From: Actinomadura macra NBRC 14102 | GTDB taxonomy: Bacteria; Actinomycetota; Actinomycetes; Streptosporangiales; Streptosporangiaceae | Assembly (NCBI RefSeq): GCF_001552215.1 | Contig: NZ_BCQT01000009.1 | Location: 434,001-498,000 of the forward strand | Reading direction: 5' to 3' | DNA length: 64,000 nucleotides | In this document: piece after piece, positions 43,555-46,322 of the stretch | How the letters are laid out: each line of letters opens with the position of its first letter | Position numbering within the stretch: position 1 is the stretch's first letter | Notes under the pieces: model-generated | The model's input: the letters and a program-made list of their open reading frames with translations, nothing else | Told to the model about the DNA's origin: nothing | Databases searched by the model: none | Position numbers and translations under genes: made by a program

Positions 43555-43696
43555 ATTGCAGTGCCCTCGGCGGTCGGGCCCTGGCGGCCCTCTCTTCAGC
43601 GGGCGCTGCGGCGATCGCTGTGTTGATTGCAGATCCCTCGGCGGTCGGGCCTTGGCGGCCCTCTCTTCAGCGGGCACTGCGGCGATCGCTGCATCG
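43555..43696. repeat. 71-bp tandem duplication downstream of aceE
   Basis: Two copies, 43555-43625 and 43626-43696, each beginning ATTGCAG and containing CCCTCGGCGGTCGGGCC and TGGCGGCCCTCTCTTCAGCG, differ at only a handful of positions. Copy 1 has the inverted repeat CAGCG-GG-CGCTG and both copies end in the palindrome GCGATCGC. The array begins 4 bases after the aceE stop codon. Copy differences suggest an older duplication. Confidence 0.9.
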
Positions 43697-43871
43697 CTTT
43701 CGACTCGCCTGGGGGCTCGCTTCGCGATCAGTTCCTCGCAGGCTCGGAACTGCCTTCGGACGCGATCGCAACGCTCAGGTGGTCGACCGCTGAGGTAACG
43801 ACCGCAGGGGTGCTCACGGAAGTGATCGCGGAGGTGTAGGCCGCGATCCCCACCGGACACCTCGAACCGCG

Positions 43872-43898
43872 AAGGGCCCCGAGGATCTCGGGGCCCTT
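43872..43898. terminator. Bidirectional terminator between aceE and the SRPBCC operon
   Basis: AAGGGCCCCGAG (43872-43883), loop GAT, CTCGGGGCCCTT (43887-43898): a perfect 12-bp stem followed by a short T-run on the plus strand. It ends transcription of both convergent units. Confidence 0.85.
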
Positions 43899-43919: not shown

Positions 43920-44183
43920 TTACTGGCCTTCGGCCTCGTCCACCGTCAGCTTCGCCGCGATCGCGTAGTCGATCTGGACGTCGCGGTAGGTGACGTGCTC
44001 CGCCACCTCGTCGGGGAGGTTCTTTCTGGCGCTCCCCGACGCCGATTCGTCACCGGCGTCCCCCGTGAACTCCACCGAGGTGTCCGGGACTGCGTCGAAT
44101 CGCAGTTCGTCGGCCTTCACGTGGGCCTCGATGAGGATGTCCGCCGACTTGCGTGTGTCCCGCCCTGGATACTCGCGGCTCAT
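43920..44183 (-). CDS. Small acidic protein of unknown function
   Basis: An 87-residue acidic protein (YPGRDTRKSADILIEAHVKADELRFDAVPD, then DEVAEHVTYRDVQIDYAIAAKL) with alternating hydrophobic residues suggesting a small beta domain. GAGGTGGACGATC precedes the ATG at 44183. I recognise no family. It is the third gene of an operon with an SRPBCC protein and an 11-residue-repeat protein, 12 bases behind the latter. Confidence 0.75.
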   Translation of the reverse strand: MSREYPGRDTRKSADILIEAHVKADELRFDAVPDTSVEFTGDAGDESASGSARKNLPDEVAEHVTYRDVQIDYAIAAKLTVDEAEGQ

Positions 44184-44195
44184 GATCGTCCACCT

Positions 44196-45095
44196 CTACT
44201 TGGTGACCTTCTGGAACAAGGCCCGTCCCAGCCCACGGACTGACTCCTCGGTCTCGCGCAGGGCGCTCCGAACCGCTCCCACGTCGTCCGGGTCCGCCTC
44301 GTCCGTTCCCCCGCCACCGGACGTCTCGCTGTCGCCGCTGTCGCCATCCGCTCCCCCAGCGGTCCCTCCGGCGCCTTCCCCCTCTCCCTGAGTGGCCTTA
44401 CCGGCGCCTTCTGCTGCTCCTCCGACGGCCTGACCTGTGCCAGTGCCCACACCTTCGACGGCCGCGCCCGCGTCCCCGACCGCACCGCCCGCGCCCTCGC
44501 CGACGCCCTCGACAGCGTGGCCAGTGCCCTTGCCGACCTCCTGGACCGCGCCCCCAGCACCGCGACCGACGCCCTCGACCGCGCCACCGGCTCCCCTGCC
44601 GACGTCCTGAACCGCGCCGCCGGCCCCCCGGCCGACGTCCTGAACCGCGCCACCCGCGCCCCGGCCAACCTCCTGAACCGCGCCACCGGTACCCCGGCCG
44701 ACCTCACGCACCGCCTCACCGGCCCCGGTTCCAATGCCACGCGCCGCCGCCTCCACCCCGCGTCCGACATGCTGGAGGATCTCCGGATTGCGATCGAGCG
44801 TGGTCAGGACCCGATCGACGATCTCGGCGACGTTGTTCAACCGGACATCCAGCAGCGCCTGCGCCTCGACACCCCTGATGTCCAGTTTGACCCTGCCGAG
44901 GAACACGTCAGCGCCGACGTTCAGCCTGAGCAGGTCGAGCACCTGGGCGACCAGGGACACATGCGCCTCAAGGTCCGCCACCTCAAGGGAGATCTCGTCC
45001 ACCTTGAGCAGCGGAACGTCGAGGTGAACGTCCGGCCCTTCGGCGGACGGCGTCCGCTTCTCCCCCGCCGCCGGAGCCTGAGATCTGTCCGGCAC
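44196..45095 (-). CDS. Protein with conserved N-terminal domain and 11-residue glycine-rich repeats
   Basis: A 299-residue protein. Residues 22-105 form a conserved domain: DVHLDVPLLKVDEISLEVADL, LDLLRLNVGADVFLGRVKLD, VEAQALLDVRLNNVAEIVDRVL. From about 110 to 210 an 11-residue unit of the form VGRGAGGAVQD recurs about nine times, giving a long amphipathic helical pattern as in synuclein- or LEA-type proteins. Then comes a Gly/Asp/Ser-rich acidic linker and a short helix (AVRSALRETEESVRGLGRAL). The GTG at 45095 follows the SRPBCC stop by 4 bases. Comparable proteins sit beside gas-vesicle genes in Streptomyces, by my recollection; no GvpA is here. Membrane or vesicle-surface binding is a guess. 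Confidence 0.75.
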   Translation of the reverse strand: MPDRSQAPAAGEKRTPSAEGPDVHLDVPLLKVDEISLEVADLEAHVSLVAQVLDLLRLNVGADVFLGRVKLDIRGVEAQALLDVRLNNVAEIVDRVLTTLDRNPEILQHVGRGVEAAARGIGTGAGEAVREVGRGTGGAVQEVGRGAGGAVQDVGRGAGGAVQDVGRGAGGAVEGVGRGAGGAVQEVGKGTGHAVEGVGEGAGGAVGDAGAAVEGVGTGTGQAVGGAAEGAGKATQGEGEGAGGTAGGADGDSGDSETSGGGGTDEADPDDVGAVRSALRETEESVRGLGRALFQKVTK

Positions 45096-45099
45096 CTGG

Positions 45100-46092
45100 T
45101 CAGGTGTCTTCTCGGTTATCGCTCTCCTTCTCCGGCTCAGGGCCGTTCTCGTCCTCGGGTGCTTCTGCCGTCGTCTCTTTCTCCTTGTCTTCGCCCTTGT
45201 CCTGCTCCTCCTTGAGCACCTCTTCGTGCGTCTTGACGACCTCGCCGTCGCGAATCTCGCCGCGCCACCCTTCGACCTCGTCCTGCTCCAGGATCGTTTG
45301 GGTCATCATGTGGCGCTTGATGTTCTTGTACTCCAGGCGGAGGCGGCGTCCCTGGGCCCGCCACAGGTTCGCGGTCTTCTCAAAGAACCCACTCGGGTAG
45401 TACTCGGCGACGAGCAGGACCCGCGTCATCGTGGGAGCCAGCTCATGGAACGTCACAGCACCGTCGACGTACCCCTTGGCGCCCTTGGACATCCACACGA
45501 TCCTCTTGTCTGGGACCTGCTCGATGATCGTGGACTCCCAGTCGCGGTGGGACAGGAAGATCTTCGCCCGCCAGTTGATCTTCTCGTCCGACTCCTGTTC
45601 GACGCTCTCCACCTTCTTGGTGAAACTCGGATAGTCGGCGAACTGGGTCCACTGGTCGTAGACGACTCGGAGCGGCAACCCGACATCGAATTCCTCGATG
45701 ATGTTGATGCCCTTGGCTTCGCCGCCCTTGGCGCCCTTGCTGCCCTTCGCGCCCTCTCCCTTGGACCCGACGGCCCCCTTGATCGTCTCCTTGGCGCCGG
45801 TCGTGCCCGCCTTGAGTCCGGCCTTGAGCGGGGACTCGCCCTCGGCGAGCTTCTCGGCACCCGCGGCGGCGGCCTTCACCCCCGCGCTATCGCTCTTCTC
45901 CGCGACATCGGTCAGCCGCTGGGTCATGCCCTGCATCTTGCCGCTGGCCGAACCGAGTACCTTCACCACCAACGCCTGCAAGAGTTCTTGCCCGGCCTTT
46001 TTGAGCTCGCCGACAGGAAGCCCCTCTGGCGCGTCCTGACCGGAACCGTTCTTGCGGCCCGTGTCCGTGTCCGGGGTGTCTGTCTGAACCAT
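45100..46092 (-). CDS. SRPBCC-fold protein with gas-vesicle-cluster type architecture
   Basis: A 330-residue protein. Residues 25-130 are helical and Lys/Gly/Ala rich (GELKKAGQELLQALVVKVLG, KGSKGAKGGEAKG). The SRPBCC (polyketide cyclase-like) domain runs from about 133 to 275: INIIEEFDVGLPLRVVYDQW, FADYPSFTKKVESVEQ, WRAKIFLSHRDWESTIIEQV, VTFHELAPTMTRVLLVAEYY. A Glu-rich disordered tail follows. Similar proteins are encoded in actinobacterial gvp clusters. GAGGCGAAGTGATAACC precedes the ATG at 46092. Ligand or partner unknown. Confidence 0.8.
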   Translation of the reverse strand: MVQTDTPDTDTGRKNGSGQDAPEGLPVGELKKAGQELLQALVVKVLGSASGKMQGMTQRLTDVAEKSDSAGVKAAAAGAEKLAEGESPLKAGLKAGTTGAKETIKGAVGSKGEGAKGSKGAKGGEAKGINIIEEFDVGLPLRVVYDQWTQFADYPSFTKKVESVEQESDEKINWRAKIFLSHRDWESTIIEQVPDKRIVWMSKGAKGYVDGAVTFHELAPTMTRVLLVAEYYPSGFFEKTANLWRAQGRRLRLEYKNIKRHMMTQTILEQDEVEGWRGEIRDGEVVKTHEEVLKEEQDKGEDKEKETTAEAPEDENGPEPEKESDNREDT

Positions 46093-46294
46093 GGTTATCA
46101 CTTCGCCTCGTGGCGCTGATCCGGCACGTCCGGTGCCGGTGTCGAGCCTCGTGCGTCCGCTCATCCGGCGGGCGCAAGGCCCGCATGTCTGTGGTGACAT
46201 AGCGCAAAGCACCGGCACGAAACCTGGAAAATGGCCTCTGACCAGCGGAAATAACGATCTACCAGACCTTCTGTGTTCAATGCCCGCGCATGAC

Positions 46295-46322
46295 GAAGGG
46301 CCCCGACAGATCGGGGCCCTTC
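46295..46322. terminator. Terminator of the glyoxalase-fold gene
   Basis: GAAGGGCCCCGA (46295-46306), loop CAGA, TCGGGGCCCTTC (46311-46322): a perfect 12-bp stem, 12 bases past the stop of the minus-strand VOC gene and between it and the SRPBCC promoter. It closely resembles the hairpin at 43872. Confidence 0.82.

What the first reader, a model, noticed from the sequence alone, without database searches (positions are those of the whole stretch)
43920..46092. Three-gene operon: SRPBCC protein, 11-residue-repeat protein, small acidic protein
The middle protein has about nine 11-residue repeats predicted to form a continuous amphipathic helix, as in lipid-binding synuclein or LEA proteins, after a conserved globular domain. 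The SRPBCC protein has a long Lys/Gly/Ala helix at its N-terminus. They look like gas-vesicle-cluster accessory proteins but no structural gvp gene is nearby, so the trio may serve another membrane or particle.
Basis: partly seen in the sequence, partly recalled or inferred. Interest (0 to 1): 0.65.

Follow-up and report, generated by a model that had tools for sequence, protein, structure and literature searches.

The report
Gas-vesicle-independent amphipathic coat-protein operon
Three neighbouring genes in an Actinomadura-type bacterium form a stand-alone unit whose middle protein looks built to lie on an oily surface; relatives occur in bacteria without gas-vesicle genes, so it probably serves another particle or membrane.

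Summary
Three close-packed minus-strand genes (43920-46092) encode an SRPBCC protein, a protein with a conserved domain plus nine in-register 11-residue repeats, and an 87-aa acidic protein. The trio is intact in 16 of 16 Actinomadura loci of one scan (L027-L042); no flanking gene family is shared by more than 6 of 20 loci. The repeat is real (lag-11 identity 0.68; shuffles at most 0.40) and amphipathic on an 11/3 helix. The SRPBCC protein is a relative of a gas-vesicle-operon protein: 4 of 4 plasmid loci I opened have gvp genes within 2 kb. The middle and small genes were in 0 of 13 gvp loci. The genome does carry a gvp cluster on another contig, but the middle gene does not track GvpA (38 of 57 GvpA-positive, 4 of 8 GvpA-negative genus genomes); a complete trio sits in a GvpA-negative genome, and family f16 has the middle gene in 20 of 39 genomes and GvpA in 0 of 39. 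Neither PHA nor TAG synthase tracks it. Best reading, inferred: a gvp-independent coat for a hydrophobic surface, perilipin-like in physics. The surface is unknown. The middle domain and small protein had no significant Pfam, NCBIfam, PHROG or PDB-fold match.

The parts
45100..46092 (-). SRPBCC-fold protein (330 aa) with a Lys/Gly/Ala-rich N-terminal extension (about residues 25-128) and an acidic C-terminal tail; relative of the SRPBCC protein of actinobacterial gvp operons
   Evidence: Pfam PF03364 E 6e-16 over residues 137-252; relatives inside or near gvp operons; 18 trio copies form one clade, support 99/96, bootstrap not settled
44196..45095 (-). Middle protein (299 aa): unannotated beta-rich domain, Gly-rich 11-residue repeats, low-confidence linker, C-terminal predicted helix 270-298
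   Evidence: Homologues; window protein without Pfam/NCBIfam/PHROG match at E 0.01; AlphaFold2
44757..45032 (-). Conserved N-terminal domain (residues 22-113) of the middle protein; 13 of 92 columns invariant over 26 copies, one of them from Deinococcus
   Evidence: alignment A3; predicted strands 30-52, 56-78, 81-85 then helix 86-102
44472..44768 (-). Nine in-register 11-residue repeats, residues 110-208, typical unit V-G-R-G-A-G-G-A-V-Q-D
   Evidence: autocorrelation and hydrophobic moment; silent divergence between repeats
43920..44183 (-). Small acidic protein (87 aa), predicted three-stranded beta protein (strands 16-28, 48-54, 65-77)
   Evidence: downstream gene in 16 of 16 Actinomadura loci L027-L042; AlphaFold2 mean pLDDT 83; no PDB fold match at E 0.001
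43872..43898 (.). Perfect 12-bp inverted repeat (3-nt loop) between the operon end and the convergent aceE-type gene; likely bidirectional terminator
   Evidence: terminator function is inference (one search did not flag it)
46295..46322 (.). Perfect 12-bp inverted repeat (4-nt loop) upstream of the operon, just after the end of the next gene
   Evidence: terminator function is inference

Best explanation
The trio is a self-contained, gas-vesicle-independent module that covers or stabilises a hydrophobic surface in the cell. Shown by comparison: a middle + small gene pair found in several actinobacterial groups, joined in Actinomadura by an SRPBCC protein whose relatives lie in gas-vesicle operons. 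Inferred: the middle protein's 11-mer repeats fold, on contact with an oily or membrane surface, into a long 11/3 amphipathic helix with a narrow Val/Ala face bordered by Gly, as perilipin 4 and synuclein do; its beta-rich domain and the small beta-rich protein let copies assemble or dock; the SRPBCC protein, of a fold that often binds hydrophobic ligands (recalled), loads or chaperones that surface. The repeats' net charge swings from about 0 to -3 per repeat between homologues while the hydrophobic face stays, so binding should depend on hydrophobic contact and lateral packing rather than attraction to acidic lipid headgroups. Which surface (lipid inclusion, membrane or an undescribed particle) is not known.
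For: 11-mer periodicity and moment peak at the 11/3 angle; among 43 homologous copies listed, all 34 with a scored repeat block peak at 96-99 degrees (angles 80-120 scanned). Trio intact in 16 of 16 loci L027-L042; apart from the trio no family was shared by more than 6 of 20 loci, some with cut flanks. A small-gene hit accompanies the middle gene in 32 of 42 stretches held (some places are held twice or in two parts), also in Nonomuraea, Streptomyces, a Solirubrobacterales MAG and 5 of 6 f16 genomes, there one gene away. One f16 long copy (L053) passes the Pfam Apolipoprotein cut-off (99.5 bits against 90); 12 of 20 A1 copies match it weakly, the window's own not. In f16 the genes sit near E3_binding-domain proteins, PspA/IM30 (4 of 6 genomes) and a ParA-type ATPase (2 of 6). 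PspA is reported on lipid inclusions of Rhodococcus and mycobacteria (PMC10699116, passages); Plin4's long, weakly hydrophobic repeat helix coats droplets (PMC8064757, passages).
Against: No lipid or particle binding has been shown; helix confidence fades after residue 130 and is under 50 from 165, and 36% Gly disfavours a stable helix. Plin4 needs a precise charge pattern, whereas charge here drifts. The small gene was not detected near 10 of 42 middle-gene stretches (L045 and L077, one place; L046, L048, L049, L075, L080, L082, L099, L100), so the two-gene core is not universal. No neutral-lipid synthase tracks the gene: WS/DGAT in 10 of 10 carrier and 10 of 10 non-carrier Actinomadura and 0 of 7 f16; PhaC in 0 of 10 carrier Actinomadura and, as strong match, in 15 of 20 f16 carriers and 14 of 19 non-carriers. 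The Deinococcus copies have what looks by eye like a signal peptide and no 11-mer array, so the domain can work outside the cytoplasm.
Confidence: 0.42

Rival explanations
1. LEA-like protectant: the middle protein is a largely disordered, Gly-rich stress protein that gains helix on drying or osmotic stress and shields membranes or proteins; the partners are stress co-factors.
For: 11-mer repeats and high Gly resemble LEA proteins (recalled); AlphaFold2 gives low confidence for most of the repeat tract; relatives in Deinococcus deserti (desert origin recalled) and D. taeanensis (coastal dune soil); small CsbD-like genes near some f16 copies (labelled by eye, similarity) and an annotated CsbD gene next to one gvp-linked SRPBCC gene.
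Against: No Pfam LEA match for the window protein or its 19 A1 homologues at E 0.01. LEA proteins rarely come with a conserved folded domain, an SRPBCC partner and a dedicated small protein (recalled). Present in only 42 of 65 genus genomes.
Confidence: 0.22
2. Gas-vesicle accessory module: the trio acts in trans on the gas vesicles encoded elsewhere in the genome.
For: The own gvp cluster has no SRPBCC gene of this kind, and the trio could supply one; SRPBCC relatives sit in or within 2 kb of gvp operons in Rhodococcus, Kitasatospora, G171 and G218; GvpA is in 38 of 42 middle-gene-positive genus genomes.
Against: No association in the genus (Fisher p 0.44). Full trio in GvpA-negative G279 and in draft G229 (800 contigs). 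f16: middle gene 20 of 39, GvpA 0 of 39. Middle and small gene in 0 of 13 gvp loci. GvpA profile unrelated (hhalign probability 0.3%). The own genome has two further SRPBCC paralogues (C4) that could fill the role.
Confidence: 0.13
3. Storage-granule phasin: a surface protein of PHA granules (f16) or triacylglycerol inclusions (Actinomadura), one system on two cores.
For: WS/DGAT in all 20 Actinomadura tested; PhaC_N matches in 38 of 39 f16 genomes, 29 of them strong; amphipathic repeats; neighbouring E3_binding-domain helical proteins and PspA.
Against: Neither synthase separates carriers from non-carriers within either group. G171 has the middle gene but no WS/DGAT over cut-off and no PhaC. 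The only phasin match is Phasin_2 at E 0.067 in one f16 protein.
Confidence: 0.15

Closest known systems
SRPBCC proteins of actinobacterial gvp operons (e.g. Rhodococcus opacus plasmid WP_120661223, directly upstream of gvpJ; the gvpZ position)
   Same: Same fold family (PF03364), 54.9% identity over 79% of the query, Lys/Gly-rich N-terminal extension
   Different: 18 trio copies form their own clade among 22 rows (99/96; bootstrap not settled), sit with the middle and small genes and away from gvp genes. Calling it GvpZ-like rests on gene order: a table lists gvpY, gvpZ between gvpG and gvpJ; SCO6504 itself was not compared
Perilipin 4 / alpha-synuclein type 11-mer amphipathic helices
   Same: 11-residue periodicity, 11/3 helix angle, small weakly hydrophobic residues (PMC8064757 passages)
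   Different: No sequence relationship shown (alpha-synuclein at E 0.36 against PDB sequences, behind designed helical proteins at E 0.0085 and up); about four Gly per repeat; variable acidic charge; extra beta-rich domain
Apolipoprotein A1/A4/E domain (PF01442)
   Same: f16 long copy L053 scores over the curated cut-off; 12 of 20 A1 members match at E 0.01 or better
   Different: The window protein itself does not match; repetitive Ala-rich helices often match this model (recalled), so homology is not claimed
GvpA gas-vesicle protein
   Same: Present in 38 of 42 carrier genomes of the genus
   Different: No profile similarity of the middle domain to GvpA; not in gvp loci; GvpC was not compared
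LEA proteins with 11-mer repeats
   Same: 11-mer repeats, Gly-rich, low predicted order
   Different: No LEA Pfam match; conserved domain and operon partners

Membership tests
Gas-vesicle system | Structural GvpA present in the genomes that carry the genes | tested here: not met
   GvpA 0 of 39 f16 genomes, 20 of which carry the middle gene (many are incomplete drafts, 22 are at least 90% complete and at most 5% contaminated); 4 of 42 carriers in the genus lack GvpA. The same query finds GvpA in 57 of 65 genus genomes
Gas-vesicle system | Genes lie in gvp clusters | tested here: not met
   Middle and small gene in 0 of 13 gvp loci of 11 genomes; SRPBCC relatives in 2 of 13 and within 2 kb of gvp genes in 4 of 4 plasmid loci opened. 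The SRPBCC partner's relatives do meet this
GvpA family (PF00741) | Homology of the middle domain to GvpA | tested here: not met
   hhalign probability 0.3%, 5-12 aligned columns
SRPBCC / Polyketide_cyc (PF03364) | Score over the curated cut-off | tested here: met
   59.2 bits against 23.4
11-mer amphipathic lipid-surface proteins (works like) | 11-residue period with an amphipathic 11/3 helix | tested here: met
11-mer amphipathic lipid-surface proteins (works like) | Binding to a lipid surface with gain of helix | not testable with these tools
   needs circular dichroism with liposomes or oil
Perilipin or synuclein family | Sequence homology | tested here: not met
   alpha-synuclein only at E 0.36 against PDB sequences; no Pfam perilipin or synuclein match
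Apolipoprotein PF01442 | Score over the curated cut-off | tested here: not met
   no match for the window protein at E 0.01; over cut-off for f16 copy L053
LEA (Pfam) | Pfam LEA match | tested here: not met
   none in 20 A1 members at E 0.01
PHA granule phasin | PHA synthase in carrier genomes | tested here: not met
   PhaC in 0 of 10 carrier Actinomadura, though in 7 of 7 f16 carriers of the same call
TAG-inclusion protein | WS/DGAT in carrier genomes | tested here: inconclusive
   10 of 10 carrier and 10 of 10 non-carrier Actinomadura, 0 of 7 f16 carriers

The most novel reading that the evidence does not exclude
The middle and small proteins are the core of an undescribed bacterial particle or organelle coat, spread over Actinomycetota and reaching Deinococcota as an exported form. 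In family f16 it is elaborated into a roughly 10-kb cluster with two middle-protein copies, helical proteins carrying E3-binding (peripheral-subunit-binding) domains as docking modules, PspA-type membrane remodelling and, in some genomes, a ParA-type ATPase that would position the particle. In Actinomadura the reduced core recruited a gas-vesicle-type SRPBCC protein.
Probability: 0.15. Interest if true: 0.82.

Novelty: new variant of a known kind. Interest (0 to 1): 0.5.

Why it matters
If the reading holds, bacteria have a perilipin-like surface coat with a conserved domain that the curated libraries searched here do not cover, and gas-vesicle operons and this module share a partner protein. 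That would help tell what the SRPBCC protein of actinobacterial gvp operons does, because it would act on something common to gas-vesicle shells and this other surface. It also gives a small gene set with which to look for the particle.

Tried and rejected
GvpA relationship: by eye the middle domain's G-V-E stretch resembled GvpA; profile comparison rejected it. Internal duplication of the middle domain: 19 columns align, hhalign probability 0.1%, dropped. Relationship of middle domain and small protein: none (0.5%). Link to the neighbouring aceE-type gene (named from its sequence, not searched), tempting because f16 relatives carry E3-binding domains: no aceE match in the other loci searched (most flanks are about 6 kb or less, some cut), dropped. 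PHA and TAG reading: no discrimination. Fold search of both models against PDB: no match at E 0.001. Phages: no hit for the middle domain in 50,697 phage records, nor by pattern scan in viral contigs. My first gene picker mis-called the own gvp cluster on the wrong strand; redone. The first residue-frequency table for the repeats was biased by its own pattern; the one is free of that but register errors blur its columns. Rows dropped before counts: in the SRPBCC tree L035, L042 and one of the C4 pair were lost to my search pattern and L078 was left out as a duplicate of L039; L080 and one short f16 copy (L049) were lost to the pattern or a length limit. My notes' label 'RHH' for the gene after ParA has no Pfam support and is withdrawn; 'phasin-like' and 'CsbD' in scripts were labels by eye. 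A note gives PhaC as 0 of 11 carrier Actinomadura; the right count is 0 of 10. Literature: eight searches listed no paper whose title or abstract start describes the middle or small family; only passages of three papers were seen.
Full report
What is there. On the minus strand, 46092-43920, three genes follow each other with gaps of 4 and 12 nt. The first encodes 330 aa with a Polyketide_cyc/SRPBCC domain (residues 137-252, E 6e-16) behind a Lys/Gly/Ala-rich extension; a GTG at 46218 could start it earlier. The second encodes 299 aa (GTG start) and the third 87 aa with 20 acidic and 10 basic residues. The operon lies between two perfect 12-bp inverted repeats, 43872-43898 and 46295-46322, probably terminators; the pattern scan did not flag them and found no sigma-70-type promoter.

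The repeats. Residues 110-208 of the middle protein are nine 11-mers in one register. Identity at lag 11 is 0.68, against at most 0.40 at any lag from 3 to 33 in 2000 shuffles; the hydrophobic moment peaks at 98 degrees, the 11/3-helix angle, at 0.496 against 0.319 for the 99.9th percentile of shuffles. Neighbouring repeats differ by 23 silent and 28 changing codons out of 88, so the pattern is old and kept at protein level. Of 43 homologous copies listed, 34 had a scored repeat block, and in all 34 the moment peaks at 96-99 degrees (80-120 scanned), while net charge runs from +0.14 to -3.0 per repeat. Nine had no scored array: five short f16 copies, L076, L083 and both Deinococcus proteins. 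AlphaFold2 on 20 aligned copies gives long strands 30-52 and 56-78, a short strand 81-85, helices 86-102, 104-170 and 270-298, with mean pLDDT 55, 47-72 over the beta-rich domain, 77-85 for residues 91-120, under 50 from residue 165 and 31-38 between 171 and about 260. So the amphipathic design is well supported; a continuous helix in solution is not.

The small protein. Sixteen copies give a model with pLDDT 83, strands 16-28, 48-54, 65-77. Neither model has a PDB neighbour at E 0.001. The window's middle and small proteins have no Pfam, NCBIfam or PHROG match at E 0.01; among 16 small proteins one gave DUF3006 at E 0.051.

Where it occurs. A pattern scan of one genome per species for 84,980 species returned 19 loci: 17 Actinomadura, Nonomuraea candida and a Solirubrobacterales MAG. 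In L027-L042, 16 of 16, all three genes stand in the same order. Apart from the trio and frames overlapping it, no family was shared by more than 6 of 20 loci (some flanks are cut), and none of eight neighbours of the trio in the window recurs beside it elsewhere, bar a WYL-type match in L038. The middle domain is in 9 of 198 genomes drawn over the phylum and in 42 of 65 genomes of the window's genus. Some carry a second type without the SRPBCC gene (L076, L079, L081, L083). It also occurs in a Streptomyces plasmid, in Nonomuraea gerenzanensis and in two Deinococcus plasmids, there behind what looks by eye like a signal peptide. A small-gene hit accompanies it in 32 of 42 stretches held; in 10 none was found (some places are held twice or in two parts). 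The genus is taken as Actinomadura because the 16 closest named loci are Actinomadura and the GvpA coordinates of G203, the genome of the A. madurae locus L032, recur as G242 in the genus list.

Gas vesicles. The own genome has three GvpA-type genes in a cluster on contig C19, with F/L, G, O and K genes, and two more SRPBCC paralogues on C4. GvpA is in 57 of 65 genus genomes; the two-by-two table is 38 both, 19 GvpA only, 4 middle gene only, 4 neither, Fisher p 0.44 (recounted). Carriers without GvpA are G229, G248, G250 and G279: the complete trio is in G279 and G229 (an 800-contig draft); G250 has SRPBCC and middle gene at one place and middle and small gene at another; G248 has the middle gene alone. 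Among 27 carrier genomes reached through loci and handles, 18 have GvpA (these overlap the other sets). In family f16, another class of the phylum by the tool's kinship label, the middle gene is in 20 of 39 and GvpA in 0 of 39. The tool warns that a search with no hit anywhere proves little, but the same query rings in the genus. Of 13 gvp loci from 11 genomes the SRPBCC relative is in two, the middle and small genes in none. Four plasmid loci opened around the best SRPBCC hits had gvp genes within 2 kb, in three the next gene being gvpJ (4 of the 33 records). For S. coelicolor a table lists gvpY and gvpZ between gvpG and gvpJ (PMC5839063, passages); the SRPBCC gene's place before a gvpJ-type gene fits gvpZ, an inference from position.

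Other particles. The 28 genomes were chosen by me from those already listed. PHA synthase: 0 of 10 carrier Actinomadura, 2 of 10 non-carriers, 0 of 1 G171, 7 of 7 f16 carriers. Over f16, 38 of 39 have a match, 29 of them strong and the rest short ones that may be other hydrolases; strong matches are in 15 of 20 carriers and 14 of 19 non-carriers. WS/DGAT: 10 of 10 carrier and 10 of 10 non-carrier Actinomadura, 0 of 7 f16, below cut-off in G171. Neither core tracks the module.

The f16 clusters. Seven stretches of six genomes (L047-L053) were read. In L053 the order is a long middle-type protein (867 aa), a helical protein with three E3_binding domains (E 2e-28), the small protein, a second helical protein with one such domain, two small genes, and a short middle-type protein ending in an E3_binding domain. 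The others share most of these genes by similarity, long copies being 590-880 aa; L049 lacks the first helical and the small gene. PspA/IM30 and a DnaJ-domain gene (Pfam in L051; similarity elsewhere) lie upstream in four genomes; a ParA-type ATPase with a partner gene is beside a middle gene in two. The long copy of L053 passes the Apolipoprotein cut-off. PspA is reported on lipid inclusions of Rhodococcus and mycobacteria (PMC10699116, passages).

Mechanism. The best-supported account is a surface coat: repeats fold on a hydrophobic surface, the beta-rich domain and the small protein organise the layer, and in Actinomadura an SRPBCC protein of gas-vesicle stock assists. Every step after the gene comparison is inference. 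Plin4 is the closest physical analogue: a long, weakly hydrophobic repeat helix that coats oil (PMC8064757, passages). It differs in needing a fixed charge pattern. LEA-type protection is the main rival. Membership in perilipin, synuclein, apolipoprotein, LEA, phasin or GvpA families was tested as listed and not met for the window protein.

Verdict. Observation confirmed; interpretation partly supported. The module combines two families outside the curated libraries searched here with a known one, and works, if the inference is right, like a known kind of surface protein. Interest 0.5: solid comparison, unknown cargo.

Noticed in passing
L047-L053 (unnamed family f16), e.g. L053:5678-14043 and L051:1704-13022: A roughly 10-kb cluster combining two middle-type proteins, helical proteins with E3_binding domains (one to three in L053), the small protein, PspA, DnaJ-domain and integrase-like genes; E3_binding domains outside dehydrogenase complexes seem unusual (recalled).
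   Followed up: partly
L052:7308-8736 and L049:3231-4657: A ParA-type ATPase with a small unannotated partner directly beside a middle-type gene; also an annotated plasmid ParAB pair beside the middle gene in L101. Could be positioning of a particle.
   Followed up: partly
L099:8386-9717, L100:8707-9708 (Deinococcus plasmids): Middle-domain proteins with what looks like a signal peptide and no 11-mer array, followed by a convergent gene that also looks exported; the D. deserti start looks annotated too late. Their C-terminal tail resembles, by eye, tails in the f16 cluster.
   Followed up: partly
L088, L089, L093 against L090, L094: In some genus genomes the gas-vesicle genes are split: GvpA-type/F/G/O at one place (L090, L094), two further GvpA-like proteins with GvpK and mostly an F/L protein at another.
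   Followed up: no
L010:5671-7677 (own genome, contig C4): Two tandem SRPBCC paralogues with long basic N-termini, away from both gvp genes and the trio.
   Followed up: partly
window 43560-43700: An imperfect direct repeat of about 60-75 bases, seen by eye, just after the aceE-type gene.
   Followed up: no
L103:6362-6958, L106:5374-5958, L105:4828-5676: A gene (annotated hypothetical or histone protein) directly precedes the gvp-linked SRPBCC gene, at the gvpY position; no counterpart is in the trio. Their mutual similarity was not tested.
   Followed up: no
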